DNA from: Salinivenus iranica
GTDB taxonomy: Bacteria > Bacteroidota > Rhodothermia > Rhodothermales > Salinibacteraceae
DNA length: 35,900 nucleotides
Assembly (NCBI GenBank): GCA_002894665.1
Contig: NCRB01000025.1
Coordinates: 1-35,900 of the forward strand
Direction of reading: 5' to 3'
Below are positions 9,141 through 30,580 of the stretch, in pieces. The first letter of the stretch is position 1; each line of letters opens with the position of its first letter. Position numbers and translations under genes: made by a program. Below the pieces are notes generated by a model. That model was given only the letters and a program-made list of their open reading frames with translations. It was not told where the DNA came from and did not search any database.

Positions 9141-12100
9141 TTAATGTCCTTCCATCGCGTGGTAAACTAATTTTATACCGCCATTCTCTGTCTTAGCACC
9201 TCCTACCCCTTCTTTCACTATATCGACATTAAACATTGCTAACGCGGTTAGAAGTTCGCCTAGCACATTTTTGTTTCCAAGTGATATGGATGCGGTCTCC
9301 AACGCTACCGCTTTAGACTCAAATCCAGCTTGTATGTTTTTCATTGCCGATGCTGTGTTAAAGACACCTTTATTGCTTGCCACGACTCCCTTTCTAACTA
9401 CCTTCACACCACCCTCCAACGTATAGTTTAGATTATCTTTTTTCTTTACGCTGTTTGCAGCCATTTCTACTTTTTGGGTATTGTTTTTACTTCCAACTTT
9501 TATTTTTTTGGCATCCACATCAACTTTTCCACTCCCCCCTGTACCCTCCAGATATATTTTCGGGGACTCTGTTATATTCTTCTTTCCAGATTTAGATTTT
9601 ATTTTTTTATCTGCCTCCATTTTTATATTTTTCTTAGCATACATGTTTATATTCTTATTTGACTGTATATTTATATCTTTTGCTGACTCTATGTTTATTC
9701 CTTTTTCCGACCGTATTGTAATAGATCCATCTTTGCTCAAGATAGCAATAGGCTTATGCTTCTCCTCGTCAAATCGGTCGTGCTTATCGGGCAGGCCGTT
9801 CATCTCCCACTCCTCCCGAAACTCTTTGTCAAACACATCCCCGTCCGATTCGCTGCTCCGGCTGATTTCCACCCGGTCTCCGAATGCATGGAGTTGAAAG
9901 CAGCCGTTCGTTACCTCGATTCCATCCCCCTCTATGTACTCGGCCCGAGACTGCCCCCCCCGTGCCCGCACGTCAACCTCAACAGACGCCGGGTAAGCCT
10001 CCCGAAACGGACGTACAAGGTATGCGTCACGCCCCACCCTTATTGTATCGTATGCCTTTTTAAATGGAGGGATCACATCTCCACTATACGTCGTAAACAG
10101 ATCTTTTCCAGCCTTTTTTAGCCGCCACTCTTCGTAATTCAAACTAGCCTCTCCAGCAAACCAATCTTCTCTTTCAGCTTTCTTAATTACATTATTTATT
10201 CCCTTTACCTCTTCCCTTTTATTCGGCTCAACAATCTCTACGTCAGTTATATCTGTTTCGGTTTCCCACACCTCAAAAGTCGTTTTTTCGGGCATATTTA
10301 TGATTTCTTCTATACTAAAACTCATTTCTCTTATTTTCTCAACATTGTACTCTTTTTTGGCGCTTTTGCTTAGTCTCACCCACCCCTCTTCGAATACATC
10401 TCTGTATCTCTCTGCGTTTTCCCAGTAATCTTCAAGTGTTTCTTCTAACAGATCATCTATCCGTACCTTAAATTCGATATTTTTGGGTAACTTTTTGTAC
10501 TCTTCTATACCAAGTTTTTCTATCATTCCGTGATCTTTTTTTCTATACTCTTTTTTTAAAATTATTTTTGTCTCTTTCTTAGACTTTTCCCATTCCTGCA
10601 GGCGAATCCTTCTCATCTCGTCTCTACTCCGCCCGCGGCTGCTCTCAAAATCCTCATTGCTCCACAGTTCTTCTACGTCGTCGCGCAAGACACATACGCC
10701 GGCGTCCTCCTTTGAGTCCAGCGCCTCCTTCTCTTGCGGCGTGACGTACTGGCGCGGGTACGGGGTTATTCGGTCCGCGTCCAGATGTGGAAAGCCGCTC
10801 AGGTCCCGTTCGTAGTAGACCCTCTTCTCGTCCGAGTAGTCCTCGTCGAGCCCGGTCACGTCGGTCCGGTATTTGGGAGCAAGGATTTGTATTTCTTCCT
10901 CCCCGCCCTCGTCAATTAGGGAAATCTCATTGTGGAGGTACGTCTCGCTGCTCTGGCCGTTGCCGCCTCCATTTTCACCATTTGTCCGGCGAGACTCGCC
11001 CCGGATGCCGGACTTCTTCGCGGGGGTATCGGCGAAGGGCATGCTGTGCGTCCCGTCGAAGAATCCCCCGATGACAAAGGGCGCCTCGCTGGAGTCCTGG
11101 GCCGGATAGGCGATGGCCACCTTGGTGTGCTTTCGGGGCAGGAAGTGGCCTCCGTAGTTGTTGCCCGCCCAGAACGTCAGCACGCGTGCCCATACCTCCT
11201 CGTTGGGCTGCCCGCCCAGGTCGACTTCCACCTTCACCATCCCCTGCTTCGCCCGGTCCCGGTGGGTGCTTTTTTCCGGGAGGCCAGTCACCGTCGCTGG
11301 GTAGATGCCGGGTTGGATCTGAGTTCCCGGCCCCGCAGTGGCTTCGGCAGACAACGCATACCGGTCGACCGACGGGCGCTCGGGGGAGCCGCCTGGGGAC
11401 GCACCGCCCGATTGCTTCATGTAGCGCGCGCCCCGGTACTTGGTGTCTGCTGTGTCTGCGCCCTCCTCGGTGGGCGGCGGCCCGATGGGAAACGCTTCAA
11501 ACTCCACCGTGCACGCGTTTCCCTCCGTGTCCAAGAGCAATCGCCCCACCACAAATTCCATGCGCGCGGCGTCGTCGAAATGGCGCAGTACATCTCCGCA
11601 GGTCTCCTCTTCCAAAACAAACCGGTGGCCCGCCCCCAGAAGGCGCGCCGGGGTAGTGCCACGGAGGAGCTTTTGGGCAGCGCGCAGTTGGTGTTGGCGT
11701 CGGCGCCTCATGTTCGGGCCCTCGGTCCAGGCCTCGGTGGAGGTCTCCGACGCGTACTGGGTCAGGCCGCCCGGTCCTTCCCGCACGGTTCCTACGGCCT
11801 GCGCCTCCCCAGTGTGCACCTCCTCGGAGGAGGTCTCCTGCGCCGTCGCGTCAGGCCCCCTGGCGGACGCCGATACCTCTTTCCCCTGGTCAAAATCCAC
11901 GGATTGGGCCATCAGCATCTCCGGGACAAGGTTCTGCTCGAAGGAATAGGAGAGGAGGGCCTTTTCGTAGTCGGTCTTGTCTGTGCTGGAGATGGGGACG
12001 AGCGTGTGCTTTTCGGTCCCGGCCTCGTCGCGCCGCGTGAATCGATCAAATGCCTCATTGTGGTCCGAGAGCACAACGGTCCCGTCCGCGTCAATCCAGT

Positions 12101-12812
12101 ACACCACACCTGCTTCTTCCGCAACGCGGTGGAAGAAGGCGTAGTCGGTCTCATCGTGCTGGGACACGTGCTTCAGCGGCGGGTATGTTTCCTTCAGGTC
12201 TGTGACGAAGGAAAGCCCGGCACGGGACAGGATCCGATTCAGAATGCCGTCCTCCGAGTCGTCGCTCGACGTTCTCGTCACGACGGGAGCGTCGGCGAAG
12301 GTGCGGCTCGTTCTTGAAAAGCGCAGCGTCCACAGCTGCGGGCGAATCTCGACGCGGTAGCCCGCAAGGCGGGACGGTTCTCGCCCCTGTCCCGCCCCGT
12401 GCTGGCGGGCGCGGCTTACGATTCCGCAGACCGTCCGCGAGGGATTGCCGTCGCGCGCGAGGGCCATCGTAATGCGCTGCCCAATCACCTCGCTGAACGG
12501 CGCGGCCGAGGAGTGGGCACTGTTCGCTCCCGCCCTCGTCTCGCCGAGGCCTCCGTCGCCCTCTCCCCCGAACGACGGCTCGTGCTCGATGTGGAACCGC
12601 ACAATGTACCGGAACAGCCCAGACAGCGACTCTGCGCCTTCGACGTGGTCGACCTTGAGGGCATCGGGGCCGGTGCCCGGCAGTAGCTTTTCAATCGCAG
12701 GTCCCGACAAGGAGACAAAGCTCATTGGGTCAGTGGATCGCATGGGATCGGTGGTTGAGATTGCTCTCGTGTTTTGGGGAGTCGGCGTCGTGCCAATGGG
12801 CGCCGGGCTCAC
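9141..12812 (-). CDS. vgrG: VgrG (TssI) spike protein with a large internal insertion
   Basis: At 1223 residues this is much longer than a plain VgrG (about 600-700). The gp27-like base spans roughly 30-445 and includes QHDETDYAFFHRVAEEAG (218-235). The gp5-like OB fold (about 505-585) contains WAGNNYGGHFLPRKH. The family segment after it (GIRGESRR..SETYLHN) is followed by an insertion of about 370 residues (650-1020), largely charged and without similarity I know. The needle then resumes as octapeptide repeats (1031-1079), followed by a further 140 residues. The 3' half of the gene is notably AT-rich and Lys/Asn/Ile-rich compared with its 5' half and neighbours. The start overlaps the clpV stop as ATGA. 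The insertion or the tail may be an effector or a cargo-binding module. Confidence 0.93.
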   Translation of the reverse strand: MSPAPIGTTPTPQNTRAISTTDPMRSTDPMSFVSLSGPAIEKLLPGTGPDALKVDHVEGAESLSGLFRYIVRFHIEHEPSFGGEGDGGLGETRAGANSAHSSAAPFSEVIGQRITMALARDGNPSRTVCGIVSRARQHGAGQGREPSRLAGYRVEIRPQLWTLRFSRTSRTFADAPVVTRTSSDDSEDGILNRILSRAGLSFVTDLKETYPPLKHVSQHDETDYAFFHRVAEEAGVVYWIDADGTVVLSDHNEAFDRFTRRDEAGTEKHTLVPISSTDKTDYEKALLSYSFEQNLVPEMLMAQSVDFDQGKEVSASARGPDATAQETSSEEVHTGEAQAVGTVREGPGGLTQYASETSTEAWTEGPNMRRRRQHQLRAAQKLLRGTTPARLLGAGHRFVLEEETCGDVLRHFDDAARMEFVVGRLLLDTEGNACTVEFEAFPIGPPPTEEGADTADTKYRGARYMKQSGGASPGGSPERPSVDRYALSAEATAGPGTQIQPGIYPATVTGLPEKSTHRDRAKQGMVKVEVDLGGQPNEEVWARVLTFWAGNNYGGHFLPRKHTKVAIAYPAQDSSEAPFVIGGFFDGTHSMPFADTPAKKSGIRGESRRTNGENGGGNGQSSETYLHNEISLIDEGGEEEIQILAPKYRTDVTGLDEDYSDEKRVYYERDLSGFPHLDADRITPYPRQYVTPQEKEALDSKEDAGVCVLRDDVEELWSNEDFESSRGRSRDEMRRIRLQEWEKSKKETKIILKKEYRKKDHGMIEKLGIEEYKKLPKNIEFKVRIDDLLEETLEDYWENAERYRDVFEEGWVRLSKSAKKEYNVEKIREMSFSIEEIINMPEKTTFEVWETETDITDVEIVEPNKREEVKGINNVIKKAEREDWFAGEASLNYEEWRLKKAGKDLFTTYSGDVIPPFKKAYDTIRVGRDAYLVRPFREAYPASVEVDVRARGGQSRAEYIEGDGIEVTNGCFQLHAFGDRVEISRSSESDGDVFDKEFREEWEMNGLPDKHDRFDEEKHKPIAILSKDGSITIRSEKGINIESAKDINIQSNKNINMYAKKNIKMEADKKIKSKSGKKNITESPKIYLEGTGGSGKVDVDAKKIKVGSKNNTQKVEMAANSVKKKDNLNYTLEGGVKVVRKGVVASNKGVFNTASAMKNIQAGFESKAVALETASISLGNKNVLGELLTALAMFNVDIVKEGVGGAKTENGGIKLVYHAMEGH
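9576..9722 (-). repeat. Octapeptide needle repeats within vgrG
   Basis: Six consecutive eight-residue units (residues 1031-1079) read ITIRSEKG, INIESAKD, INIQSNKN, INMYAKKN, IKMEADKK and IKSKSGKK. The spacing matches the triple-stranded beta-helix of phage gp5 and VgrG needles, though lysine- and asparagine-rich units replace the usual Val/Gly pattern. Confidence 0.8.
9753..10865 (-). other. Uncharacterised insertion between the VgrG OB fold and needle
   Basis: Codes for VgrG residues about 650-1020. From around 733 to 905 it is dominated by Lys, Glu and Ile and predicted helical (EEYKKL, LLEETLEDYWENAERY). A GC-richer part (about 905-1010) has a beta-like character with RVGRDAYLVRPFREAYP. 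No toxin motif was recognised. In most VgrGs the OB fold leads directly into the needle, so this is an added region. Confidence 0.7.
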
Positions 12813-15583
12813 GTGTGAATCTGGTACGCGAATCCTTCGTCACCAACATCGATGTGCGCTCCGGAGAGACCCTCTCCGTCCGCCATCCGGCCCAGCACCT
12901 TTGTAGAAAGGGTGGGCAAGAGCGTCTGCGTGAGGATGGCGTCGATGTTGCGCGCCCCGCTCTCCACCTCCTGGCACCGGGCCGCAATCTGGTCCACGAC
13001 GGCGTCGCTGTAGGTGAGCGGGGCGTTGTGGTTGGCCTCAAAGCGGGCCTGGACCCGCTCCAGCTTGAGCTCCACGATCTTTGCCATCTGCTCGTCGCCG
13101 AGCGGGTAGTACGGGATGGACACCATCCGGCCGAGGAAGGCCGAGCGGAAATGGCCTTGAAGCACGTTCCGCACCGCGTCGCCCAGGGTGTCCGGGGTGG
13201 GACGCGCCGCCCCGTAGTCGCACCGCTGCATGATCGTCTCGGTGCCGACATTGCTCGTGAGGATGATGACGGTGTTGCGGAAATCGACCGTCACGCCGTC
13301 GGCGTCCTCCAGCTCGCCCTTGTCGAACATCTGGTAGAAGAGCTCCAGCACGTCGGGGTGGGCCTTTTCGATTTCGTCGAGCAGCACCACCGAGTAGGGC
13401 GAGTGGCGCACCGCTTCGGTGAGGACGCCGCCTTCGCCGTGCCCCTTGTAGCCCGGCGGGGCCCCCTTCAGCTTCGATACCGTGTGTGCCTCCTGGTACT
13501 CCGAAAGGTTGATGCGCACGAGGTGTCCCCCGTAGAGCTCATCGGCGAGGGCCTGGGCCGTCTCCGTCTTGCCCACCCCGCTGGGGCCGGCCAGCAAAAA
13601 CACTCCGACCGGCGCGTTCGGGTCTTCCAGCTGGGCCCGCGAGGTGCGGATGCGGCGGGCAATGGCCTCCAGCGCGTGGTCCTGCCCAATCACGCGCTCG
13701 GCCAGGCGGTCCTTCAGCGACAGGATGCCCTCCAGCTCGTCCGTCTGCATCTTGCCCATCGGGATGCCGGTCCAGCCGGAGATGACGCGGGCGACGGTGT
13801 TCGTGTCGACGGCGACCGGGACGAGGGCCTCCCCCTCCCGCACCGCAGCGAGTTCCTCCCGACGGTCGGCCAGCTCATCGCGGATCGCGTCTGCGTCGCG
13901 CCCCTCCGATGCGTCGTCGCTCGTCGGCTCGTCCTCGTCCGGCGCGGCCGGCGGCGCCATCGTCTCGGGACGCGCCGGCGCCTCGTTTCCAGCCGCGTCT
14001 CCCTCCGAGGGGGCTTCCCCCAGGAGGCCGTCCGTCGGCACCCGATCGGCCAGTTCCTGCTCCAGGGCGCGAATTTCCGAGACGAGCGACCACTCGATTT
14101 CCCACTGGGTTTCCAGCGCTTCCTGGCGCTCCCGCACGGCGTCGAGCTCGCTCCGAAGCTCCTCGATCCGCGCCGCGTGATCGCGTCCCGCAAACGCCTC
14201 GCGCTCCAGGCGGTCGATTTCGAGCTCCAGGCGATCGGCCCGGTGGCGCGCATCCTCCAGCGCAGGCGGCACCGTGTTCTGCCCAATTGAGACGCGTGCC
14301 CCGGCCGTGTCGAGCACGGTGATGGCCTTGTCGGGCAGGTTGCGTCCCGTGATGTAACGGTCCGAGAGGGCCACGGCGTCCTCAATAGCCTCATCGAGAA
14401 TCCGGACCTCGTGGTGGGCCTGCAGGGCCTCGGCCACGCCCCGCAGCATGTCCACGGCGGCGTCCTGATCCGGCTCCTTCACCTGCACATTCTGGAAGCG
14501 ACGGGCCAGCGCAGCGTCTTTCTCGAAATATTTTTTATACTCCGCCCAGGTGGTCGCGGCAATCGTGCGCAGCTCCCCACGGGCGAGGGCCGGCTTTAGG
14601 AGGTTCGCAGCATCGGCGCCACCCTCCTGCGCCCCCGCCCCGATGATCGTGTGCACCTCGTCAATAAACAGGATGACCGGGCGCGGAGACGCCTTCACCT
14701 CGGTGATGACGGACTTGAGCCGGTCCTCGAACTCGCCCCGCATGCTCGCCCCGGCCTGCAGCAACCCAAGGTCGAGCTGCCGTACGGCGATGTCTTCCAG
14801 GGCGGGGGGCACTTCGCCACGGGCCACCCGCTGGGCAAAGCCCTCCACCACGGCCGTTTTGCCGACGCCGGCCTTGCCGGTGAGGATGGGGTTGTTCTGG
14901 CGGCGACGCATCAGAATGTCGGCCACCTGTCGAATTTCGGCCTCGCGCCCCCGAATCGGGTCGATCTCGCCGCGTCGGGCCTGCGCCGTGAGGTCCAGCG
15001 TGTACTGCGCAAGCGCCTCGCCGTCCGCTGCGCCGTTGCGCCCCGCCTCACGCATCGCGGCCCCGCCCGAGGCGGGCGTCTCCCCCGTGCGCTTCGCAGC
15101 CTCGTCGCTTTCGGCCATGACGGCCGCCACCACCTGGCCGAGGTCGTCGCGCGGGATGGCGAGCAGCGACGGGGCGGCGTCGGTCACGATGCCCAGCAGT
15201 TCGTCGGTGTCGAGGAGGGCAAGAAGCACGAGCCCCGACCGCACGGCCGCTTGGTCGTACTGGGTGGAGGCGCGCAGCCAGGCCTCCTGCAGGAGCGACA
15301 CGATCTGGGGCGACATGCTGGGCGTGCGGCTGTTGCCGCGCTTGAACGCCTCGGTGGCTTCGGTCAGCTCTTGAATGACGGCGGTCGGCTCCAGATCGAA
15401 GTTCTTGAAGATTTGGTGCACGTCGGTCCCCGGCCCCTGTTCCAGGAGCTTAATTAGCAGGTGTTCGACCTCCACGTTGTAGTGTGTCTGCGACACGCAC
15501 AGCGAGGCCGCCTCCTCCAGGGCCGTCCGGCAGACGGAGTTGAGGGTGCCAACCAGCTGTTCCAGATCCTGCGATGCGGACAT
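12809..15583 (-). CDS. clpV: ClpV (TssH) sheath-recycling AAA+ ATPase
   Basis: A 924-residue Clp/HSP100 ATPase that extracts and unfolds contracted TssBC sheath in the cytoplasm. An N-terminal Clp_N domain (about 8-160) is followed by the first AAA+ module, with Walker A GKAGVGKT at 236-243 and Walker B ILFIDE near 304-309. A coiled-coil middle domain spans about 440-600. The second AAA+ module has Walker A GPSGVGKT at 666-673 and Walker B VVLLDE at 732-737. An acidic, Pro/Ala-rich stretch of about 45 residues (518-565) interrupts the middle domain and is not typical. Genomic context with tssG and vgrG separates it from housekeeping ClpB. The ATG follows 42 bases after the tssG stop, and its stop overlaps the vgrG start. 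Confidence 0.95.
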   Translation of the reverse strand: MSASQDLEQLVGTLNSVCRTALEEAASLCVSQTHYNVEVEHLLIKLLEQGPGTDVHQIFKNFDLEPTAVIQELTEATEAFKRGNSRTPSMSPQIVSLLQEAWLRASTQYDQAAVRSGLVLLALLDTDELLGIVTDAAPSLLAIPRDDLGQVVAAVMAESDEAAKRTGETPASGGAAMREAGRNGAADGEALAQYTLDLTAQARRGEIDPIRGREAEIRQVADILMRRRQNNPILTGKAGVGKTAVVEGFAQRVARGEVPPALEDIAVRQLDLGLLQAGASMRGEFEDRLKSVITEVKASPRPVILFIDEVHTIIGAGAQEGGADAANLLKPALARGELRTIAATTWAEYKKYFEKDAALARRFQNVQVKEPDQDAAVDMLRGVAEALQAHHEVRILDEAIEDAVALSDRYITGRNLPDKAITVLDTAGARVSIGQNTVPPALEDARHRADRLELEIDRLEREAFAGRDHAARIEELRSELDAVRERQEALETQWEIEWSLVSEIRALEQELADRVPTDGLLGEAPSEGDAAGNEAPARPETMAPPAAPDEDEPTSDDASEGRDADAIRDELADRREELAAVREGEALVPVAVDTNTVARVISGWTGIPMGKMQTDELEGILSLKDRLAERVIGQDHALEAIARRIRTSRAQLEDPNAPVGVFLLAGPSGVGKTETAQALADELYGGHLVRINLSEYQEAHTVSKLKGAPPGYKGHGEGGVLTEAVRHSPYSVVLLDEIEKAHPDVLELFYQMFDKGELEDADGVTVDFRNTVIILTSNVGTETIMQRCDYGAARPTPDTLGDAVRNVLQGHFRSAFLGRMVSIPYYPLGDEQMAKIVELKLERVQARFEANHNAPLTYSDAVVDQIAARCQEVESGARNIDAILTQTLLPTLSTKVLGRMADGEGLSGAHIDVGDEGFAYQIHT

Positions 15584-15625: not shown

Positions 15626-17458
15626 TTACCTGCGGCCCGACGATGTCTCGGCCCACCACGCACGGAGGGCCCGCTCGAGGGGGGGGTGCTTCTGCAAGAG
15701 GCGCTGGAGTCGACCGAGCGGGAGGACGAGCACCGTGGCCGGTCCGTCGGCGCGGAGCGGGACCTCGGGCGCCGCGCCCCGCACCACCGACCGGAGGTTG
15801 AGGGGCGTGCCGGAGGTCTCCACCGCCTCTCCCTCGCGGCCCCGGATCGGTCCCCCATCGAGCAGCACGGCGAGAGCCGCTGTCTCCTCGCCTTCCGGGA
15901 GCAGGTGCTCCCCGGCCGCCACCATGCGGGTCGTGCCCTCGTTCCGGAGCAGGCGCCAGAGCGCCGCGGGGAGCACTCTGCCAAGGCCGGTCGACGGGGC
16001 GTGGGCGGCCGCCCCCCCATCCGTCCCTCCAACGGCCTCCCCCTCTGCCGACGCGTAGGCTGCCTCCAGGGCCTGCTCGATCGCCGGGTACCGATCGACA
16101 AGGGAGCGAAGCCGGCCGCGCGACACCGCGAGGAGACGAGAGCGCCGCGTGGTCACCAGCGAGCCGTCGTATTGTCCCCCACGTACGAGGGCCTCGTCCC
16201 CGAACACGCCGCCCGGCTCCAGCGTGGCGAGGACCGTTGCCTCGTCGCTCTCGGGCGACTGGTAGCGCACGTCGGCCTCGCCTTCTACGATGAGGAAAAA
16301 GGTGTCGGCCGCCTGCCCCTGCCGCGCCACGTGCCGTTCGGCCTCGACCCGGCGCGTCGGGAGGGACTCGGTCACCGCCCGGAGCTGGCTGGGGCTGAGG
16401 CCGGCGAACAGGGGGATGCGAAGGACTTCCTGCTCCGGGGAAAATGTGTCGGGCGACACGCGGGTGGTCTGGGCCTCTGCGTCGAGCCCCCCGAGCCAGG
16501 CGTCGCGGCCCAGGCGGGGGCCCAGCACCGTGCTCAAGGGCGTCGCGGACACCGACTCGCCCCGCACCGTGAGGGCGAGAGTAAGATCGATGGTCCGGCC
16601 GAGGTACAGCTCCGACAGGTCGACCAGGGCCCGGTGCGCCCGTCCGCCGGGCAAGAACCCGAGGTAGTCCCCGTACGAGAGGTCGCCTACGCGGATCGTG
16701 CCGCCCGCCGTCTGATCCCACGCCCGCCGGCCCAGCACCGCTGCGGTGCCCAGCGCCTGGTTTTGGCCGAAGCGGCCGAGGGTCGTGCGCTGCTCGGGCG
16801 CGAGCTCCATCCACTTGCCGTCGAGCGTCGAGACCGTGACATCGGCTTCGAAGTAATCCTGCAGTATCGACGAGAGGCCGTGGGCCGAGGCGGGCGACTG
16901 GTTGAGCAGGGCCGCGTACCGCAGCAAGGCCTCATCGGGAACGGACAATCGGTCCCGGGCGGCCTCCGTCCCAATCCCCGCAATGGCCCGCAGGTACCGA
17001 GCCGCGGTGCTCTCGCCCGGCGCGCCGGCCTCCATGCCCACGTGGTGGCGCCTTCGGCTCCGGTACTGGAGCGCGATGGGCCGATGAACCAGCAGGTCCA
17101 AAAAGTCCCGCAGGGCCGTGTCGCCAGAGCGGGCCCGGGCCTGCATTTGCTCGGCGTAGGGATCGGGGAGCGGGCCGTGGGGCCCCGTCAGGCTCATAAA
17201 CGAGACCGTCATCTCCACGGGCGCGTCCTCCGCGTCGGGCACCTCGACCGCCACCACCTCGCTGGCCGGGAACGCCCTGCCGTCGTGCGCCCGGAACCGC
17301 ACGGGCTCTTCGGACGGAGATGCACTGGTCCCCACCGGGGCACAGTCCGGGCGGAACCGTTCCAGAAGGCGAACGGCCTCGTAAAAGTCAAACCGGTGGG
17401 CGTCGTCGACCAGCGCCTCCCCTACAGGAGGTTCTGATCGCCGGCTCGGGGGGGCCAT
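15626..17458 (-). CDS. tssG: TssG baseplate protein fused to cyclic-nucleotide-binding-like domains
   Basis: A 610-residue protein from the ATG at 17458 (MAPPSRRSEP). TssG alone is usually about 330-350 residues. Residues about 15-325 are TssG: FYEAVRLLERF, SFMSLTGPHGPLP, FLDLLVHRPIAL and RLGRDAWLG at the expected end. A cyclic-nucleotide-binding-like domain follows at about 346-468, with IPLFAGLSPSQL and GGVFGDEAL. A second, more degenerate copy lies at about 490-605, with LLPEGEE, VLLDGG and LQRLLQKHPPLERAL. In the first copy the CRP-type pocket residues Glu72, Arg82 and Ser83 align with Asp421, Asp431 and Gly432, so cAMP binding is doubtful. The start overlaps the tssF end by 37 bases. A longer frame to 17638 lies inside tssF and is rejected. 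Confidence 0.9.
   Translation of the reverse strand: MAPPSRRSEPPVGEALVDDAHRFDFYEAVRLLERFRPDCAPVGTSASPSEEPVRFRAHDGRAFPASEVVAVEVPDAEDAPVEMTVSFMSLTGPHGPLPDPYAEQMQARARSGDTALRDFLDLLVHRPIALQYRSRRRHHVGMEAGAPGESTAARYLRAIAGIGTEAARDRLSVPDEALLRYAALLNQSPASAHGLSSILQDYFEADVTVSTLDGKWMELAPEQRTTLGRFGQNQALGTAAVLGRRAWDQTAGGTIRVGDLSYGDYLGFLPGGRAHRALVDLSELYLGRTIDLTLALTVRGESVSATPLSTVLGPRLGRDAWLGGLDAEAQTTRVSPDTFSPEQEVLRIPLFAGLSPSQLRAVTESLPTRRVEAERHVARQGQAADTFFLIVEGEADVRYQSPESDEATVLATLEPGGVFGDEALVRGGQYDGSLVTTRRSRLLAVSRGRLRSLVDRYPAIEQALEAAYASAEGEAVGGTDGGAAAHAPSTGLGRVLPAALWRLLRNEGTTRMVAAGEHLLPEGEETAALAVLLDGGPIRGREGEAVETSGTPLNLRSVVRGAAPEVPLRADGPATVLVLPLGRLQRLLQKHPPLERALRAWWAETSSGRR
15659..15961 (-). other. Degenerate cNMP-binding-like domain 2 of TssG
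   Basis: TssG residues about 500-600. It repeats the layout of domain 1: a hydrophobic start (LWRLLRNEGTTRMVAAG), PEGEETAALAVLLDGG, then ATVLVLPLGRLQRLL. The phosphate-binding cassette is not recognisable. Assigned by internal resemblance only. Confidence 0.5.
16055..16423 (-). other. cNMP-binding-like domain 1 of TssG
   Basis: TssG residues 346-468. Jelly-roll pattern with VARQGQAADTFFLIVEGEADV and the cassette FGDEALVRGGQYDGSLV, which aligns without gaps to the CRP cassette. The phosphate-binding arginine is replaced by aspartate. Confidence 0.75.
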
Positions 17459-19224
17459 CGGTGCCAGGTGCCGTCGCGTTGATTCGAAGAGAGTACGAGT
17501 TGGGTAAAGGAATCGACGGAGGCGTGCAGTCCAACGACGTGGTTGAGCACGGCGCCGAGCAGAAAGGCGCTCGACCCGACGAACGAGCGCTCGTCGACGG
17601 TCAGGACGACCTCCGTGCCCCGACAGTAGCCCCGCCACGCCTCGTCCCCCACGCGCCGCGCCACCGTCTGCGTGGAGAGGGCCCGGAGGCCCTCCAGCTG
17701 CTGCTCAAAGTCGGCGGGCGCCCCGCCGCTGTAGAGGCGGAGCCGCTCACGGAGGGCGTCGAGGCTTTCCGGGCGGCTGGAAAGGGACAGGTGGTTGAGC
17801 GTCAGATTGGAGACCAGCTGCCACAGGTGTTCTCCGCCGAGGGGCGGGTCGATCGGATTCGAGGGCGTCGCCACGCCTGTTATCTCGGTCACCGGAAGCC
17901 CCTGATCGGACGTGTACTGGGCCTGCGGCGGAATATCCTCTGGCAGGCGCCGGTTCGTGCAGAGCACGTGCCCGTACACCGTCTCGTCGGCGGGGCGTGT
18001 GGGGTCGAGGTCGCGATCGACAAACGAGACGACGAGGTCCGTCCCCTCGTGGTGCGGATGCGGTCGGCGCTCGGTATACCAGAAGGCCGACGGCCCCTCG
18101 GGCCGGGTTCGGTGATCGAAGCCGAAGTACGGTCGGTACGTCCGCCCCGCTTCCGGATCGCGGGTACTGCGGATGGACTCGACCGAGTGAATCTCGGTCG
18201 TCTCCTCCCGGCGCCGGTCGGCCACCAGCCGGTACTCCACCTGCCGTTGGTCAACGCGGAGGGGGTCGGTGGTGCGCCGAAACAGGTTGACGGCCGGCGT
18301 GCAGTTGAGCCGCACGTTTTGGGCGCTAACCTGCACCGTGTCGTCAGGCGGTCGGTCGAGCAGCGCGAGCACGTCCACGTAGTTCTCGCCCGGGCTCCGA
18401 TCCAGGTGCCGAAGATTCGCGAAGAGGTACTTTCGCGGGAAAGTGGCGTATTCCTGGATGAGGCGGTGAGCGTCGTGGGCGTGGTCGGGGGCCGGCAGAG
18501 TGGCCTCTTCTTCGTCAAAGCCGACGGGCCGCAGGGCGTCGGTCGGCAAAAACTCCGGCGTGCTCTGATCCTCGTCGAGAAGCACCACCCGGCGCGTGTG
18601 AGCAAAGAGCAACTCGTAGAGGCTGGAGGTCAGCTGCGGGTCGCCCGCCAGGTGCAGGCGCACCTGCCGGAGGTCGTAGTCGGACCAGACGCCGTCGTCG
18701 CACCGAATGCGAAGGCGAAGCACCGCTTCCACCTCGTGCGCGCCCGAGAGCACATCGTAGCGGTCCCGCGGTTCTATTGCGACCTGCGTCACCGAGAACG
18801 GCCAGAGCGTGAGCGGGTAGGCTGTGCGAAAGCGACAGGTCTCCCCCGTCGGGGCGTCGAGGTAGAGCGGCGTCTCGGCGGGCACCTGCGTGCCGTCGCC
18901 CGGCACGCCCTGGTCCAGGTCCACCGCAAACTGCACGATGGACTGGGCCGGGACGGGCGACACCAGCTGCGGATACAGCACCCCCAGCAGCCCCGTCGTG
19001 AGGCGAGGCATGTCGCGCTCGATGTTGTACTGGACCCGCCCGCAGAGAAACGCGAGCGACTCGATGAGCCGTTCCATGTGCGGATCAGGGCTTTCCTGAT
19101 CACCAAGCGCCAGCCGACGCGCCACCTTCGGGTACGCCTCCGCAAAGGTCTGCCCCATCTCACGGAGGGCCTGCAGCTCGCGCCGGTAATAGGGCAGCAG
19201 TGTATCGAGGGCCTCGGAAGGCAT
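17422..19224 (-). CDS. tssF: TssF baseplate protein
   Basis: A 600-residue TssF/ImpG/VasA family protein, part of the TssEFGK baseplate wedge. The N-terminus is typical: LLPYYRRELQALREMG, FAEAYPKVARRLAL, DPHMERLIESLAFL, then RDMPRLTTGLLGVLYPQ. A later LFRRTTDPLRV and YRPYFG are also in family style, and the length is normal. It begins 38 bases after the tssE stop. Its last 37 bases overlap the start of tssG, in line with the obligate TssF-TssG complex and coupled translation. Confidence 0.95.
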   Translation of the reverse strand: MPSEALDTLLPYYRRELQALREMGQTFAEAYPKVARRLALGDQESPDPHMERLIESLAFLCGRVQYNIERDMPRLTTGLLGVLYPQLVSPVPAQSIVQFAVDLDQGVPGDGTQVPAETPLYLDAPTGETCRFRTAYPLTLWPFSVTQVAIEPRDRYDVLSGAHEVEAVLRLRIRCDDGVWSDYDLRQVRLHLAGDPQLTSSLYELLFAHTRRVVLLDEDQSTPEFLPTDALRPVGFDEEEATLPAPDHAHDAHRLIQEYATFPRKYLFANLRHLDRSPGENYVDVLALLDRPPDDTVQVSAQNVRLNCTPAVNLFRRTTDPLRVDQRQVEYRLVADRRREETTEIHSVESIRSTRDPEAGRTYRPYFGFDHRTRPEGPSAFWYTERRPHPHHEGTDLVVSFVDRDLDPTRPADETVYGHVLCTNRRLPEDIPPQAQYTSDQGLPVTEITGVATPSNPIDPPLGGEHLWQLVSNLTLNHLSLSSRPESLDALRERLRLYSGGAPADFEQQLEGLRALSTQTVARRVGDEAWRGYCRGTEVVLTVDERSFVGSSAFLLGAVLNHVVGLHASVDSFTQLVLSSNQRDGTWHRWPPRAGDQNLL

Positions 19225-19262: not shown

Positions 19263-19718
19263 TCAGCCGCTCGTGCGAATCTTGAAGGGAAAGGCCACGG
19301 GCCGGCGCACCTCGCCGACCACCAGCAGGGCCTCCACCCGCGCGGTCACCCGGCCCGGCGCAAGGGCCGGCTCCACCGTCACGCGAACGTCGTGGAGGCG
19401 GGGTTCAAACGCCTCGATGGCCCGTCGCACCTCGCGGGCCACCTTGTTGAGAGCCTGCTGATTCCCGGGCGACACCGGCGCAAAATCCGGAAGGCCGTAC
19501 TCCGTGACGGTGCGCTCTCCACGCAGCGGCCGGTCCCGCACCAGCGTCCGGCGGGTGCTGAGCAGCCACTCCAGGTCGCGCCGCACGAAGGCCTTCAGTT
19601 CCTCGGCCGTGGCAGTGCGACGAAGCGTCCCCTCAGACGTGTCTCCCGGCCTCTCGTCGAGCAGGCGATCTAGGAGAGACAAGCGAGCACGGGGGTCGTC
19701 CGGTTCGGGAGGGGGCAT
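19263..19718 (-). CDS. tssE: TssE gp25-like baseplate protein
   Basis: A 151-residue protein of the gp25-like lysozyme-fold family that has no enzyme activity. It sits in the baseplate wedge and helps start sheath polymerisation. Seen are LSLLDRLLDERP, then VRRDLEWLLSTRR, TVTEYGLPDF (the usual Y-G-L-P-D motif) and a C-terminal beta part ending VAFPFKIRTSG. Length and position between hcp and tssF are as expected. It starts 63 bases after the hcp stop. Confidence 0.93.
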   Translation of the reverse strand: MPPPEPDDPRARLSLLDRLLDERPGDTSEGTLRRTATAEELKAFVRRDLEWLLSTRRTLVRDRPLRGERTVTEYGLPDFAPVSPGNQQALNKVAREVRRAIEAFEPRLHDVRVTVEPALAPGRVTARVEALLVVGEVRRPVAFPFKIRTSG

Positions 19719-19781
19719 GGCTCAACTCTCTGCCCCTTTGGCCCGGGCCCCCGACTCGCCGGGGGCCCCGGACCCGTTGGG

Positions 19782-20279
19782 CTACGAGATCTTGTTGGTC
19801 GTGAGATCGTGCGTCACGGGCTGCGCCGAACCGGCCTCGCCCGTCTCCTTCTGTGGCGTGTAGGTGTAGGTGATCTTCCCGTAGGTGAGCTCAATCTCCT
19901 CCGTCGGGATGTCGCCTTCTCCGCCGACCACGTTGTAGTCCGAGACGATGACCTTCTCCATTTCGATCTGGAGGTACTTAATCGGCTCGCCCGTATTGCC
20001 GTCGGCCCGGTAGGCCTGCATCACTGCCTTTTCGATGTGCTGTCCTGTCCAGCACATCTTCACCAAGTCGTCGGTCGCCGAATCAATGTGCTTTCGAAAG
20101 GTGAAGGGGCTGTGGTTGACCCGCTCCACGGTGCCGCCCCCCGCCGAGCTGCGGTTGGGAGACTGCGGCTGATCGAAGTGATGCTGCCACCCGAGCACCT
20201 CCACCCAGTCTTCGTGGTTCTGGTCGGTGCTTTCGCCCGTAATGTCAGGGCCGGTGAAATTGATATAAACGTTGGTCAT
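19782..20279 (-). CDS. hcp: Hcp (TssD) tube protein
   Basis: A 165-residue Hcp, the subunit of the hexameric rings stacked into the inner tube and a secreted hallmark of T6SS. Seen are YINFTGPDITGES near the start, VEVLGWQHHFDQP, FTFRKHIDSATDDLVKMCWTG (the typical HxxxK/T-x-D segment) and IELTYGKITYTYTPQ near the end. There is no C-terminal toxin extension. The gene is set apart from tssC by a terminator-like hairpin and a putative -7 element, which fits a need for far more Hcp than baseplate proteins. Confidence 0.95.
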   Translation of the reverse strand: MTNVYINFTGPDITGESTDQNHEDWVEVLGWQHHFDQPQSPNRSSAGGGTVERVNHSPFTFRKHIDSATDDLVKMCWTGQHIEKAVMQAYRADGNTGEPIKYLQIEMEKVIVSDYNVVGGEGDIPTEEIELTYGKITYTYTPQKETGEAGSAQPVTHDLTTNKIS

Positions 20280-20292
20280 GGGACTGTCGGAT

Positions 20293-20300
20293 CAAATTTA
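20293..20300 (-). promoter_or_regulatory. Putative -7 element of an hcp promoter
   Basis: On the minus strand this reads TAAATTTG, an exact match to the TAnnTTTG -7 consensus of Bacteroidota promoters, 13 bases before the hcp ATG. No clear -33 TTG was found at the usual distance. The call depends on the host using this promoter type. Confidence 0.45.
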
Positions 20301-20315
20301 TAATCAGTGAAGAGG

Positions 20316-20346
20316 AAAAACGGGGCCCGGCGAGGCCAGCGCCCCG
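20316..20346 (-). terminator. Intrinsic terminator between tssC and hcp
   Basis: CGGGGC (20341-20346 read on the minus strand) pairs with GCCCCG (20321-20326). GGC/GCC pairing inside the loop is also possible, and five T residues follow on the minus strand (20316-20320). It lies just after the tssC stop and before the putative hcp promoter, and would reduce read-through from the upstream operon. Confidence 0.6.
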
Positions 20347-20357
20347 AAAACCGTTCG

Positions 20358-21836
20358 TTACGCCGGTTCGGGAAGCTCGGCCACCATGCGAATCGAGGCC
20401 GTCAGCTCTTCCAGCTGGAAGTGCGGGCGGACGAACACCGTCGCGTCGTAGGCGCCCGGCTTGCTGGGCTTCTCGACGACGTCGATGCGCGCCTCGCGGA
20501 GCGGATACTGTGCTTTCAGCTCCTGCCCGGCGTCGTCCTTGCCGAGGGTGTACTGGTTGATCCAGCGGTTGAGGAACGTCGAGACGTCGTCCTTCGACTG
20601 GAAGCTCCCGATCTTGTCGCGCATGATGGCCTTGATGTAGTGCGCAAAGCGAGAGGAGGCCATGATGTACGGCAGGCGCGCTGAGAGGGCCGCGTTGGCG
20701 GTAGCCTCGTCCGTGTCGTACTCCTTCGGCTTGTTCGTCGTCTGCCCGCTGAAGAAGGCCGCCCGGTCGGTTTCCTTGTCGTGCACCAGCGAGATGAAGC
20801 CCAGCGTCGAGAGCTCATTCTCGCGCCGATCGGTAATTGCAACCTCCGTCGGCGTCTTAATCGCCACGTCGCCGTCGTCGGTTTTGAAGGCGTGCGTGGG
20901 GAGGCCTTCCACGAGTCCGCCGCCTTCTACCCCCCGAATGGCGGCGCACCACTTGTACTTCGCGAAGGCGTTGGTCATGCGCTCGCCGAGGGCGTAGGCC
21001 GCGTTGCCCCAGAGGTAGCGATCGTGATCCGTGCCGTGCACGTCCTCGACGAACTCGAAGTCGTCGGCCGGCTTCTCCTCCGGGTCGTACGGCTCACGGA
21101 TCAGCATGCGCGGAAGCGTAAGCGCCACGTACCGCGAGTCCTCGCTCTCGCGAAACGAGCGCCACTTCGTCAGCTCCGTGCTCTCGAAGATTTTCGACAG
21201 GTCTCGCGGCTTGTCCAGCTCCGTCCAGCTGTCCATATCGAAGAGTTCCGGCGAGGGCGAGCTGACAAATGGCGCGTGCGCGGCCGACGCCACGCTCGAC
21301 ATGCCGTCGAGAAACGACATGTCTTTAGAGCTGCGATCGATCTCGTAGTCGCCCACGAGCAGGCCGTAAGGACTGCCCCCAAAGGTACCGTACTCTTTCT
21401 CGTAGATCTTTTTGAAGAGCTGGCTCTGGTCAAACTCGACAGCCTTCTCTAGGTCGTCGAGCAGTTCTTCCTTCGAGGCATTGAGCAGACGAAGCTTCAG
21501 CGTGCGACTCGTCTCGGTGTTGAACACCAGGTGTGAGAGGCCGCGCCAGGAGGCCTCCAGGTCCTGAAACTTGTCGTGGTGAAGGATTTCGTTGACCTGT
21601 TCGGAGAGCAGCTCGTCGATCTCGGCAATTCGCTCCTCAATCGAACTGAGCGTATCGGCGTGCACGGTCATGTCCTCCTCCATCACCTGATCGACGAACT
21701 CGCCGACCAGGCTCTTGGCGCGCTCTTCCTGCTCCTCGCTCCGTGCCATCTTTCCTTCCTGCACGATGCGATCGAGGGTGCTTTCTGCTTCGGTTTGGGT
21801 TCCGTTCTGTGCTTGGGTCTCGGTGTCTTCAGCCAT
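20358..21836 (-). CDS. tssC: TssC large sheath protein
   Basis: A 492-residue protein from the ATG at 21836 (MAEDTETQ), the large subunit of the contractile TssBC sheath. Family marks are FQDLEASWRGLSHLV, KEYGTFGGSPYGLLVGDYE, ALTLPRMLIREPY and FVEDVHGTDHDRYLWGNAAY. A C-terminal part follows with RLPYIMASSRFAHYIKAI and LNRWINQY. Length is normal. A longer frame to 21902 exists, but the extra residues lie beyond the usual start. It is 71 bases downstream of tssB, its obligate partner. Confidence 0.96.
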   Translation of the reverse strand: MAEDTETQAQNGTQTEAESTLDRIVQEGKMARSEEQEERAKSLVGEFVDQVMEEDMTVHADTLSSIEERIAEIDELLSEQVNEILHHDKFQDLEASWRGLSHLVFNTETSRTLKLRLLNASKEELLDDLEKAVEFDQSQLFKKIYEKEYGTFGGSPYGLLVGDYEIDRSSKDMSFLDGMSSVASAAHAPFVSSPSPELFDMDSWTELDKPRDLSKIFESTELTKWRSFRESEDSRYVALTLPRMLIREPYDPEEKPADDFEFVEDVHGTDHDRYLWGNAAYALGERMTNAFAKYKWCAAIRGVEGGGLVEGLPTHAFKTDDGDVAIKTPTEVAITDRRENELSTLGFISLVHDKETDRAAFFSGQTTNKPKEYDTDEATANAALSARLPYIMASSRFAHYIKAIMRDKIGSFQSKDDVSTFLNRWINQYTLGKDDAGQELKAQYPLREARIDVVEKPSKPGAYDATVFVRPHFQLEELTASIRMVAELPEPA

Positions 21837-21907
21837 GAGACTATGGGTTCTGTGACGAAGGGGAGTGAAGGGAAGGGCGGGGCCGAACGGATCCGGCGCC
21901 ACCGGGG

Positions 21908-22438
21908 CTACACGGCGTCCGCCTCGTCCTCGTCGGCGGCGTCTCCGTTTGCCTCGAGCGACTCGCGGATTTCCTCTTGCACCTCGGTGTTGTCGAGGAT
22001 GTCCCGGAGGAGCGACTCCAGCTTGGCATTGCCCTCCAGCTTGGCTGCGAGGTCGGACAATCGCTGCCGCGCCTCAAAGAGCTGGCGGAGCGGCTCCACC
22101 TGCCGGACGACCTCCGAGGGGGTGAAGTCCTCCATATCCTCAAACTCAAGGCTCACGTTGAGCTGATCATCCGCATCGTCGGTGAGCTTGTTGTCGACCC
22201 GGAAGTTGAGCTCCGGATTGATCGAGCCGAGGACCTCGTTGAAGTTGTCGCGATCGATCTCGGTGAACTTCCGGTCCTTGAGGGGCGGTTTGCCCTGGTC
22301 CCCGGAGAGGTCCGCGAGGACACCGACGATGAAGGGAAGCTCCCGCTTCTCGATGGCGTCGCCGGTTTCGACGTCGTAGGTGATCTGCACCCGGGGCGGG
22401 CGCACGCGGTCCAATTTGTGCTGCGTACTTTCGGCCAT
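21908..22438 (-). CDS. tssB: TssB small sheath protein
   Basis: A 176-residue TssB/ImpB/VipA protein that pairs with TssC to build the sheath. Seen are RPPRVQITYDVETGDA, KRELPFIVGVLADLSG, KPPLKDRKFTEIDRDNFNEV, then LRQLFEARQRLSDLAAKL and a helical end. The tail (about 155-176) is very acidic, with EANGDAADEDEADA, in line with a high-salt host. The ATG lies 161 bases after the tssA stop, a gap that holds two hairpins. Confidence 0.95.
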   Translation of the reverse strand: MAESTQHKLDRVRPPRVQITYDVETGDAIEKRELPFIVGVLADLSGDQGKPPLKDRKFTEIDRDNFNEVLGSINPELNFRVDNKLTDDADDQLNVSLEFEDMEDFTPSEVVRQVEPLRQLFEARQRLSDLAAKLEGNAKLESLLRDILDNTEVQEEIRESLEANGDAADEDEADAV

Positions 22439-22507
22439 GGGCCTGTGCTGCTTGTGAAGGAAGTGAGCGTCGATGAACGTGAGGACGGCCGTGCGTGCAT
22501 CCTGCGG

Positions 22508-22545
22508 GCAGGCCGCCTGCCGACCGAGGCGTTGCTGCCTCGGTT
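22508..22545. other. Two adjacent hairpins in the tssA-tssB gap
   Basis: ACCGAGGC-GTTGCT-GCCTCGGT (22524-22545) and GGCAGG-CCG-CCTGCC (22508-22522) form two perfect stem-loops side by side. No T tract follows on the minus strand. They may set mRNA processing or pausing between tssA and the highly expressed sheath and tube genes. Confidence 0.5.
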
Positions 22546-22599
22546 GTGTGTGGAGAGTCGATGTTGTGTGCGTTGGAAGAGGGAGTCACGAAACGGGGA

Positions 22600-23688
22600 T
22601 TACGCGGGGTCGTCGCGAGGGCGCGCATCGTCCATGCCCAGCAGTTCGTAGATCTCATCGAGGTCGTCGCCGCTCTTCACGAGTTCGTGCAACAGCTCAT
22701 CGAGCGACATGCTGCCCCACGATACGGCCCGCTTGACGAGGTAGGGTGTGGGGCTGTGCGGTTCGGTCCGAAGTAGGAACTCAGCGGCCTCCCAGAGCAG
22801 CTGGTAGGCTTCTGCCCGGCTTTGAATGGTGACGTTCCCGACCTCCGCAGGCTCGGATTCGCCGGCGGCGTTGGGCATCCAGTCGGGCGTCTTCTCACCG
22901 TCGTCCGCTTCAGGCTCGGGCTCTTCGGTCGGTTCGCGCTCGGTCAGCACCCGCTGCCCAAAGCTGCGCATCTCGCGGAGGGTGTCTTTCCAGCGGTCGA
23001 GCCCCGCGACATCGGGATCACACCGATCCGCCAGGAGGCGTTCGAGGGCCTGCGAGGCATCAAGCAGTTCGTCGAGGCCCGCAACGAGGTCCTGGTAGTA
23101 GGCGGTTGGGGTGAGCGTCACGCTCGTGCGTACATCGCTTCGGGTGGGCTGGTCGTCCGTGGCCTCCGCCTCGGGAGCGGCCCGTTCCCAGTCGACCAGC
23201 GTGAACGTGTCGGCTTCCCCCGACACGTCCGGCGCGGTGAGAGGCACCGACTTGAGCGTGGGGGACAGCTTGTCGTTGACCCACCGGATGGGCGCCAGCC
23301 GGAACTCCAGGTCCCCGTCCCTGATCGGCGGGTACACGTCGGCCCAGAACCCCTCCACCAGGCCGGCCATCAGGTCGATTCCGGCGGCGGCGCCCCCCAC
23401 CCCGTAGCGATGAATCCAGGCCTCGGTGAGCCACGCGGCGAGTTGCAGGTCCTTGGTTTTTGTTTCGAGGGCGTCGGTGCACAGGCGCTCCACCGCCTCC
23501 CAGTCCGCGGTGTCGAGCTCTCGCTCGTAGATGCCCTGCGGAAGGGACGGGTTGTCCGCATGCCGGGCGTCTTTCACCGCGTCGTAGGTGCCCTCATAGC
23601 GGAGGGACGTGCCCGCCGGCTGATCGGGGGATATGGGGTCGAGGAGTCGCTCGACGTCAACCGGAATGTCGTGAATGGTGTGAGCCAT
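22600..23688 (-). CDS. tssA: TssA (ImpA-type) assembly protein
   Basis: A 362-residue protein from the ATG at 23688 (MAHTIHDIPV). TssA proteins prime and coordinate tube and sheath polymerisation from the baseplate. The ImpA_N domain (about 8-140) shows SPDQPAGTSLRYEGTYD and DLQLAAWLTEAW. The C-terminal part (about 290-350) has SRAEAYQLLWEAAEFLL, EPHSPTPYLVKRAVSWG and LDELLHELV, typical of the family. An acidic linker (about 260-285) joins the two. A longer frame to 24147 runs inside tssM and is rejected. It starts 30 bases after the tssM stop. Confidence 0.93.
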   Translation of the reverse strand: MAHTIHDIPVDVERLLDPISPDQPAGTSLRYEGTYDAVKDARHADNPSLPQGIYERELDTADWEAVERLCTDALETKTKDLQLAAWLTEAWIHRYGVGGAAAGIDLMAGLVEGFWADVYPPIRDGDLEFRLAPIRWVNDKLSPTLKSVPLTAPDVSGEADTFTLVDWERAAPEAEATDDQPTRSDVRTSVTLTPTAYYQDLVAGLDELLDASQALERLLADRCDPDVAGLDRWKDTLREMRSFGQRVLTEREPTEEPEPEADDGEKTPDWMPNAAGESEPAEVGNVTIQSRAEAYQLLWEAAEFLLRTEPHSPTPYLVKRAVSWGSMSLDELLHELVKSGDDLDEIYELLGMDDARPRDDPA

Positions 23689-23717
23689 GGCACGGCGGGA
23701 CGAACGAAACAAACGAA

Positions 23718-27824: not shown

Positions 27825-27863
27825 GGGACTGAACCGTCCGGCAATGCAGCGGAGGAAGGTGCG

Positions 27864-30070: not shown

Positions 30071-30580
30071 TCAGCGACGAGGGCGCACCTGAAAGTCTGT
30101 TCGGTTCAGGGTGAGTTCGAGTGTGCGGTACGGCGGCACCCGGTCCCGATGGGCTCCCGGCGATCGGTAGCCGGCAAACACAAACGCCGCCTGCGCCCGA
30201 TGGTCTGCCGTCAGTCGACGAGGAGGGACCGACTGTCCCGGTGCCCACTCCCATCGCCATCGCTCGAAGCCCTGGGGATGCCGCCACGCCAACGCGCGCC
30301 GTTTCCGAAACCACTCCGCAGCAGACAACGATGAAAGCGTGTCTACGAGAGCAGGCTCGTACACATAAACAACCTCCACGGCGACCGGCATTTGCTGATT
30401 TGTGGTGTCAGTGGTCTGCACCGCGAGATCGACCGGACGCTGGTAATACGGGGCGGATACGCACCCGGCGGCAGCGAGAACAATGCCAAGGAAGATGCCT
30501 GCCCTCAATACACCGGCAACTGAACGAAAACACTCTGCGAGTACCACCGGGGGAGGAACGAGGATCGAGATGTCGCACAT
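30071..30580 (-). CDS. tssJ: TssJ-like outer-membrane lipoprotein
   Basis: A 169-residue frame whose hydrophobic segment IFLGIVLAAAGC ends in a clear lipobox (AAGC, Cys40). The mature part is about 130 residues. It has the TssJ pattern of an early beta strand with VAVEVVYVYEP followed by LSSLSAAEWF, where TssJ proteins show their V-x-Y-x-L and F-x-x-L segments, and a C-terminal strand ending LELTLNRTDFQV. TssJ anchors TssM in the outer membrane. The 28 residues before the hydrophobic core are long for a lipoprotein, so an internal start such as the TTG near 30508 is possible. It is the first gene of the T6SS cluster. Confidence 0.75.
   Translation of the reverse strand: MCDISILVPPPVVLAECFRSVAGVLRAGIFLGIVLAAAGCVSAPYYQRPVDLAVQTTDTTNQQMPVAVEVVYVYEPALVDTLSSLSAAEWFRKRRALAWRHPQGFERWRWEWAPGQSVPPRRLTADHRAQAAFVFAGYRSPGAHRDRVPPYRTLELTLNRTDFQVRPRR

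What the first reader, a model, noticed from the sequence alone, without database searches (positions are those of the whole stretch)
15626..17458. TssG fused to cyclic-nucleotide-binding-like domains
TssG is normally a baseplate protein of about 340 residues. Here the frame continues for about 280 more residues into a clear cNMP-binding-like domain and then a degenerate second copy. The first copy aligns without gaps to the CRP cassette, but the phosphate-binding Arg is Asp431 and the ribose-binding Glu is Asp421. The fold may therefore sense another ligand or act as a binding surface. It would place a sensor, or a docking module, in the baseplate itself and suggests a post-translational control of firing. 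I know of no described T6SS with this fusion.
Basis: partly seen in the sequence, partly recalled or inferred. Interest (0 to 1): 0.88.

Follow-up and report, generated by a model that had tools for sequence, protein, structure and literature searches.

The report
TssG baseplate protein with pseudo-sensor tail
In two related bacterial genomes a structural part of the toxin-injecting type VI secretion machine has gained two extra domains shaped like cyclic-nucleotide sensors but lacking the usual binding residues, so they are more likely a docking or regulatory add-on than a cAMP sensor.

Summary
One uninterrupted 610-codon gene (window 15626-17458, minus strand) encodes a complete TssG, with the LG motifs of both TssK-binding feet, followed by two cyclic-nucleotide-binding-fold (CNB) domains. 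CNB1 is above Pfam's cut-off. CNB2 is below it, but is homologous to CNB1 (0 of 2000 shuffles reach the score) and is modelled as a CNB fold at low confidence.
An assembly error is very unlikely: a second genome of the same genus has the same 610-residue protein, 95% identical. The fusion is rare: 38 of 38 other complete TssG proteins compared end 13-65 residues after the last matched residue, against 287 here.
Both copies lack the phosphate-binding arginine and the ribose-binding glutamate. CNB1's best NCBIfam match is the domain of family 2B encapsulins, reported not to bind cyclic nucleotides. The genome has a canonical-looking CNB protein and a cyclase-family match, so the loss looks specific to this protein.
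I favour a docking or assembly-control module beside TssK over a cAMP sensor. A non-cNMP ligand remains open. No ligand, partner or effect on firing is shown.

The parts
15626..17458 (-). tssG-CNB-CNB fusion gene, 610 codons plus stop
   Evidence: same gene in L032 at 95% identity
16490..17401 (-). TssG core, residues 20-323 (PF06996 / TIGR03347)
16730..16780 (-). TssG foot 1, residues 227-243, three LG motifs (227, 236, 242)
   Evidence: sequence and alignment; feet as defined in PMC8406304 (passages)
16490..16525 (-). TssG foot 2, residues 312-323, three LG motifs (312, 316, 322)
   Evidence: PMC8406304 (passages)
16427..16489 (-). junction, residues 324-344: end of the TssG tail running into the start of CNB1
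16025..16426 (-). CNB1, residues 345-478 (PF00027 best at 369-457)
   Evidence: dN/dS 0.20
16148..16213 (-). phosphate-binding-cassette equivalent of CNB1, residues 416-437 (FGD instead of FGE; Tyr430/Asp431 where Arg is expected)
   Evidence: identical in both genomes
15986..16024 (-). Gly/Ala-rich linker between CNB1 and CNB2, residues 479-491
15629..15985 (-). CNB2, residues 492-610, degenerate second CNB copy
17422..19224 (-). tssF, directly upstream, overlapping tssG
12809..15583 (-). tssH/clpV, directly downstream, 42 bases after the tssG stop
19263..30015 (-). rest of the T6SS core: tssE, hcp, tssC, tssB, tssA, tssM, tssL, tssK
9141..12812 (-). vgrG with a long C-terminal extension

Best explanation
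This is a TssG with all its recognisable working parts and a tandem of pseudo-cyclic-nucleotide-binding domains added just behind foot 2. Shown here: one frame, complete TssG profile, LG motifs in both feet, two CNB-type copies, loss of the canonical cNMP-binding residues in both, presence in a second genome. Inferred: one TssG sits in each of six wedges, so every baseplate would carry twelve CNB domains near the peripheral TssK trimer. There they act as a protein-docking or steric assembly-control module. They bind a partner (candidates: TssK or TssM cytoplasmic parts, Hcp, or another wedge's CNB pair) and so help or delay wedge closure and docking at the membrane complex. They do not read cAMP or cGMP in the usual way.
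For: Both domains are in one frame in two genomes. CNB1 dN/dS is 0.20, like the TssG core at 0.24, and residues 401-447 around the cassette are identical. Both copies lack the Arg and the Glu. The best NCBIfam match of CNB1 is the family 2B encapsulin domain (E 7.1e-15, below that family's cut-off), reported to bind no cyclic nucleotide (PMC12407261, passages, citing earlier work). The same genome has a CNB protein with a canonical GELALLNESPRSAT-type cassette and one Guanylate_cyc-family match, so cNMP signalling is probably available there. TssG is the adaptor that holds two TssK trimers through two loops, and a C-terminal T25 fusion to the EAEC TssG C-terminal domain showed no TssF or TssK contact (PMC6300606, passages), so a bulky C-terminal module lies where it could matter. 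A CNB domain is known to bind a T6SS part: in Lysobacter, Hcp binds the cNMP domain of the regulator Clp in a pull-down, and binds GST-Clp with Kd 1.51 uM (PMC7577485, passages).
Against: No partner is identified. CNB2's dN/dS of 0.56 rests on 7 nonsynonymous and 5 synonymous changes and does not exclude near-neutral drift. The fusion is known from only two closely related genomes. A degenerate canonical pocket does not exclude another ligand: the Xanthomonas Clp domain is described as a c-di-GMP effector (title only, in a reference list). NCBIfam holds few CNB models, so a best match there is weak evidence of kinship. The place of the TssG C-terminus in the assembled baseplate and the twelve-copy count are inferred from other species' structures, which I did not superpose.
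Confidence: 0.5

Rival explanations
1. Ligand sensor for something other than cAMP or cGMP. CNB1 binds a different small molecule (for example c-di-GMP or a metabolite) and changes the CNB pair's contact with TssK, so baseplate assembly or firing follows the cell's state.
For: CNB1 is under constraint and its cassette region is unchanged between the two genomes. The Xanthomonas c-di-GMP regulator CLP (3iwz) is among the structural matches of the CNB2 model (Z 9.5, rmsd 3.5, 115 aligned). Authors of encapsulin work suggest unknown ligands for such domains (PMC12407261, passages).
Against: No ligand residues can be named. The 50 rows are nearly tied (Z 8.7-9.9), so CLP is not singled out. CNB2 lacks any recognisable cassette.
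Confidence: 0.25
2. Tolerated passenger. A gene fusion joined a CNB protein to the end of tssG, where it is harmless; it has no role of its own.
For: Known from only two related genomes. CNB2 dN/dS is 0.56. No tandem-CNB relative was found elsewhere in the 114 genomes of the order at E 1e-5.
Against: CNB1 is as constrained as the TssG core. In EAEC a C-terminal fusion to the TssG C-terminal domain was not harmless in two-hybrid tests (PMC6300606).
Confidence: 0.17
3. Canonical cAMP or cGMP sensor in the baseplate.
For: Clear PF00027 match and a match to cyclase family PF00211 in the genome.
Against: The phosphate-binding Arg and the ribose-binding Glu are missing in CNB1, and the cassette is gone in CNB2.
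Confidence: 0.05
4. Artefact: misassembly, or a read-through of two genes that are separate in nature.
For: The window is a whole 35.9 kb contig of a 133-contig assembly. A GTG conserved in both genomes lies at codon 334.
Against: Same fusion, same length, no stop or frameshift, in another genome. The GTG has no well-placed Shine-Dalgarno-like sequence (by eye); this is weak evidence, since not all bacteria need one.
Confidence: 0.03

Closest known systems
Canonical TssG (EAEC TssG, PDB 6giy, 6n38; PF06996)
   Same: Whole profile matched, LG feet kept, gene order tssE-tssF-tssG-clpV as in the annotated Pantoea plasmid cluster.
   Different: 38 of 38 other complete TssG proteins compared end 13-65 residues after the last matched residue; this one goes on for 287.
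Family 2B encapsulin CBD (NF041163)
   Same: Best NCBIfam match of CNB1; a CNB-fold add-on in an HK97-fold assembly, with divergent pocket residues and reported not to bind cyclic nucleotides.
   Different: There the domain is inserted in the E-loop of an HK97 shell protein; here it is a C-terminal tandem on a tail baseplate protein.
Tandem CNB of PKA regulatory subunits and PKG (for example 3shr, 2qvs)
   Same: Two CNB copies in a row; among the best solved-structure matches by sequence for CNB1.
   Different: The cNMP-binding residues are lost in both copies; no kinase; a bacterial baseplate protein.
Lysobacter Hcp-Clp contact (PMC7577485)
   Same: A T6SS part binds a cNMP-type domain.
   Different: There the domain belongs to a transcription factor and Hcp acts on gene expression; here the domain is covalently in the baseplate protein.

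Membership tests
TssG (T6SS baseplate wedge) | Full-length profile match above the curated cut-off | tested here: met
   298.2 bits vs 24.6; 285.9 vs 143.3
TssG (T6SS baseplate wedge) | Two TssK-binding feet with LG repeats | tested here: met
   LG at 227, 236, 242 and 312, 316, 322; motif from PMC8406304 (passages)
TssG (T6SS baseplate wedge) | Lies in a T6SS cluster next to tssF | tested here: met
TssG (T6SS baseplate wedge) | Forms the TssK-TssF-TssG wedge | not testable with these tools
   needs co-purification or cryo-EM
cNMP-binding domain family (PF00027), CNB1 | Profile match above the cut-off | tested here: met
   66.5 bits vs 27.5
cNMP-binding domain family (PF00027), CNB2 | Profile match above the cut-off | tested here: not met
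   14.5 bits vs 27.5. Homology to CNB1 is supported otherwise, so I call it CNB-like by descent, not a Pfam member
Functional cAMP/cGMP receptor | Phosphate-binding Arg in the cassette | tested here: not met
   Tyr430/Asp431 in CNB1; none in CNB2
Functional cAMP/cGMP receptor | Ribose-binding Glu (FGE) | tested here: not met
   FGD, Asp421, in CNB1; LNL in CNB2
Functional cAMP/cGMP receptor | Binds the nucleotide | not testable with these tools
   needs purified protein
Family 2B encapsulin | NCBIfam score above the cut-off (shell protein with CBD) | tested here: not met
   51.5 bits vs 400; only profile positions 71-201 of 450 match

The most novel reading that the evidence does not exclude
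A T6SS whose baseplate carries a built-in allosteric switch. The C-terminal CNB pair on each TssG holds the wedge in a state unable to close around TssK, and binding of a partner (free Hcp, by analogy with Lysobacter Hcp-Clp) or of a non-cNMP ligand moves it aside and licenses assembly. Tube-protein supply or a metabolic signal would thus be read directly by the baseplate, without transcription or the phosphorylation pathway.
Probability: 0.15. Interest if true: 0.85.

Novelty: new variant of a known kind. Interest (0 to 1): 0.55.

Why it matters
Reviewed T6SS control acts on transcription, on messenger RNA, on phosphorylation (the TPP pathway), or through accessory proteins such as TagA and TagF, and the signal that triggers the baseplate is called uncharacterized (PMC10482370, passages). 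A regulatory-type fold covalently in the wedge adaptor would be a new place for control and a handle on what licenses baseplate assembly. If it is only a docking module, it still shows that the end of TssG can carry about 30 kDa, which bears on models of the wedge.

Tried and rejected
Fusion elsewhere: P0001 against relatives (60 genomes), a phylum sample (395), the order (114), the family of the nearest TssG (14), the class (244) and a sample of the class of G237 (391); the sets overlap. Only the window's genome and G006 match over residues 1-610. Plasmid records: 353 with a match, 0 with one place covering 80% of the query (60 of 353 rows seen). That threshold could miss a TssG plus CNB1-only fusion among the 293 rows not listed. 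The best-covered row seen, Pantoea H10 (75%), is a read-through of two annotated genes, tssG and an AAA ATPase. The Gemmatirosa hit H1 has an ordinary TssG end. The match of G215 to residue 375 crosses a stop and is chance tail similarity. Phyla outside Bacteroidota were tested only through the plasmid set and one genome-contig scan with P0001 alone, which reaches close relatives only and gave G006's contig and one Paraburkholderia contig.

Source of the CNB domains: no tandem relative of the extension in 114 genomes of the order at E 1e-5, no match in the phage collection, 14 plasmid records, none over 80% of the query; the annotated ones are Crp/Fnr regulators, ion channels or a CNB-domain protein, three have no annotation under the match. 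None confirmed in viral contigs with the tail or with A1; one locus with A4, not used further. Among the 60 loci then held, CNB1-like frames were only in loci of the window and G006 and in loci fetched for CNB matches, so no separate CNB gene was seen beside tssG in the fetched relatives. The single CNB with the highest score (G486, 40.5 bits) has a canonical-type cassette and is a separate 181-aa ORF. PHROGs gave nothing for the tail.

Structure: the first AlphaFold job (tail, 2 sequences) gave mean pLDDT 41.8 and is too poor to rely on, although the 50 Foldseek rows listed are, by title, CNB, Crp/Fnr or channel-type entries, kinases with CNB domains or an encapsulin with one. The second (CNB2 with CNB1 as relatives) gave 58.9, and its matches lean on the CNB1 rows in the alignment, so they support but do not prove the fold. 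CNB2 against canonical CNB proteins without CNB1 gave nothing (hhalign probability 0.4). No family is excluded by absence from these lists. An internal start making a free CNB product was looked for and not supported.

Papers: organism-based searches gave 4 papers for Salinibacter with type VI secretion (genus guessed from recall; listing only) and 0 for Rhodothermaeota.

Full report
What is there. The window is a whole 35.9 kb contig of a 3.4 Mb genome and carries a T6SS cluster on the minus strand with TssK, TssL, TssM, TssA, TssB, TssC, Hcp, TssE, TssF, TssG, TssH/ClpV and VgrG. The tssG frame (15626-17458) encodes 610 residues without a stop. Residues 20-323 match the TssG profile over positions 2-304 of 304, and residues 369-457 match the cNMP-binding profile over 2-89 of 89, above its cut-off. 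By sequence, solved TssG structures match residues 23-322, and PKG/PKA and CRP-type CNB structures match about 345-475.

The second copy. Residues 492-610 alone reach only 14.5 bits in Pfam, below the cut-off of 27.5 (E 0.034 over the library, about 1.4e-6 for the one model by my arithmetic). CNB2 aligns with CNB1 at score 82, with 0 of 2000 shuffles at or above it whichever copy is shuffled, and hhalign gives P 1.3e-4, probability 54%, against an alignment that contains CNB1. Against canonical CNB proteins without CNB1 it gives nothing. So CNB2 is best read as a diverged duplicate of CNB1. A model made with CNB1 rows as relatives (mean pLDDT 58.9) has the order helix, strands, short helix, strands, two helices. 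The 50 entries listed by VIA-align are, by title, CNB, Crp/Fnr or channel proteins, Z 8.7 to 9.9, best 9.9 with rmsd 3.6 over 119 residues. Those rows lean on CNB1.

Not an artefact. Another genome (G006, whose contig is CAJXLV010000004.1, an 'uncultured Bacteroidetes bacterium' MAG), placed by the tool in the same genus, encodes the same 610-residue protein at 95% identity. Between the two, dN/dS is 0.24 for the TssG core, 0.20 for CNB1 and 0.56 for CNB2. Synonymous divergence is small (0.084 overall), so the open frame alone is weak evidence of function; the value for CNB1 is better evidence, and that for CNB2 is not conclusive. Third-position GC is 0.87 in the core, 0.86 in CNB1 and 0.90 in CNB2.

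How rare. Of 41 distinct TssG proteins in fetched loci (alignments), one is cut by a contig end (L017) and was dropped. Of the other 40, 38 end 13-65 residues after the last residue matched to the profile built here, and the window and G006 go on for 287. In two of the 38 (L074, L078) the match stops within foot 2, so their true tails are shorter than counted. The nearest TssG proteins (G237, 41% identity over 17-339; G215) have ends of 48-49 residues. Searches of 60, 395, 114, 14, 244 and 391 genomes (overlapping sets) found full-length matches only in these two genomes. Two other members of the genus (G008, G010) have an ordinary TssG.

The TssG part looks working. Both TssK-binding feet keep their three LG motifs (227, 236, 242; 312, 316, 322), the motif described in PMC8406304 (passages). 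The CNB starts about 20 residues after foot 2.

The pocket. In CNB1 the FGE motif reads FGD (Asp421). In CNB2 the corresponding stretch is PLNLRSVVRGAAPEVPL, with neither residue. The genome has five PF00027 matches, this gene among them. Of the three others whose frames I printed (one of the four was not), one has a canonical GELALL...PRSAT cassette. There is one Guanylate_cyc-family match. So cyclic-nucleotide signalling is probably present, and the binding residues were lost in this protein in particular.

How it most likely works. TssG is one per wedge, binds two TssK trimers by its feet and two TssF, and six wedges close around VgrG (PMC6300606, passages; six TssG per baseplate also in PMC12872787, passages). 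A T25 domain at the C-terminus of the EAEC TssG C-terminal domain went with loss of TssF and TssK interactions, which the authors read as steric hindrance (PMC6300606). A natural addition of about 30 kDa at that end is therefore well placed to affect wedge assembly. With the canonical pockets gone, the best NCBIfam match a domain reported not to bind cyclic nucleotides (a library with few CNB models; PMC12407261, passages), and a precedent for a cNMP-type domain binding Hcp (PMC7577485, passages), I commit to a docking or assembly-control module at 0.5. Steps shown: fusion, fold family, residue loss, constraint on CNB1. Steps inferred: location in the assembled baseplate, copy number, partner, effect.

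Prior description. Full-text searches combining TssG, T6SS or contractile injection system with cyclic-nucleotide-binding terms returned 0 papers, 481 papers holding two of three terms, of which the 20 listed do not hold the domain term, 2 papers and 6. Of these last eight I saw the passages with the search terms in seven (PMC7577485, 12 of 49 places shown; PMC12419801; PMC10482370; PMC12872787; PMC9963460, TssG only; PMC10360401; PMC8125075) and found no such fusion in them; PMC6037860 I saw only in the listing. The library lacks most subscription papers and all preprints, so this is not proof of novelty.

Score. The architecture is new as far as I can see but is a domain fusion within a known system, known from two related genomes, with no functional evidence.

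Noticed in passing
window 19263-20279 and 30071-30580: Between the window and G006, TssB, TssC, TssF and ClpV are 97-98% identical, but TssE is only 64%, Hcp 87% and the ORF 30071-30580 63%: local replacement by recombination, or fast change.
   Followed up: partly
window 30071-30580: ORF next to tssK with a lipobox-like stretch (LAAAGC, by eye) and no family match above cut-off; a candidate TssJ, by position and inference only.
   Followed up: partly
window 9141-12812: VgrG of 1223 aa with about 600 residues beyond its OB domain and only weak DUF3540/DUF2345-like matches there; possibly an evolved VgrG.
   Followed up: no
window 7960-9126: MORN_2 repeat protein directly downstream of vgrG, with a similar stretch (30% identity) near the T6SS genes of L047; could be an effector, an adaptor or an immunity protein.
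   Followed up: no
L044, L045, L046, L047: Clusters with a related tail module (TssC 59-65% identical in three of the four) show no relative of the window's TssK, TssL or TssM at E 1e-5 in the fetched stretches; they may use another membrane complex, or the genes may lie outside the stretches.
   Followed up: no
L074: A TssG with a long low-complexity insert within foot 2.
   Followed up: no
L029 1501-1893: A degenerate CNB domain in a 567-aa frame of G035, on the same contig as its T6SS but some 170 kb away.
   Followed up: no
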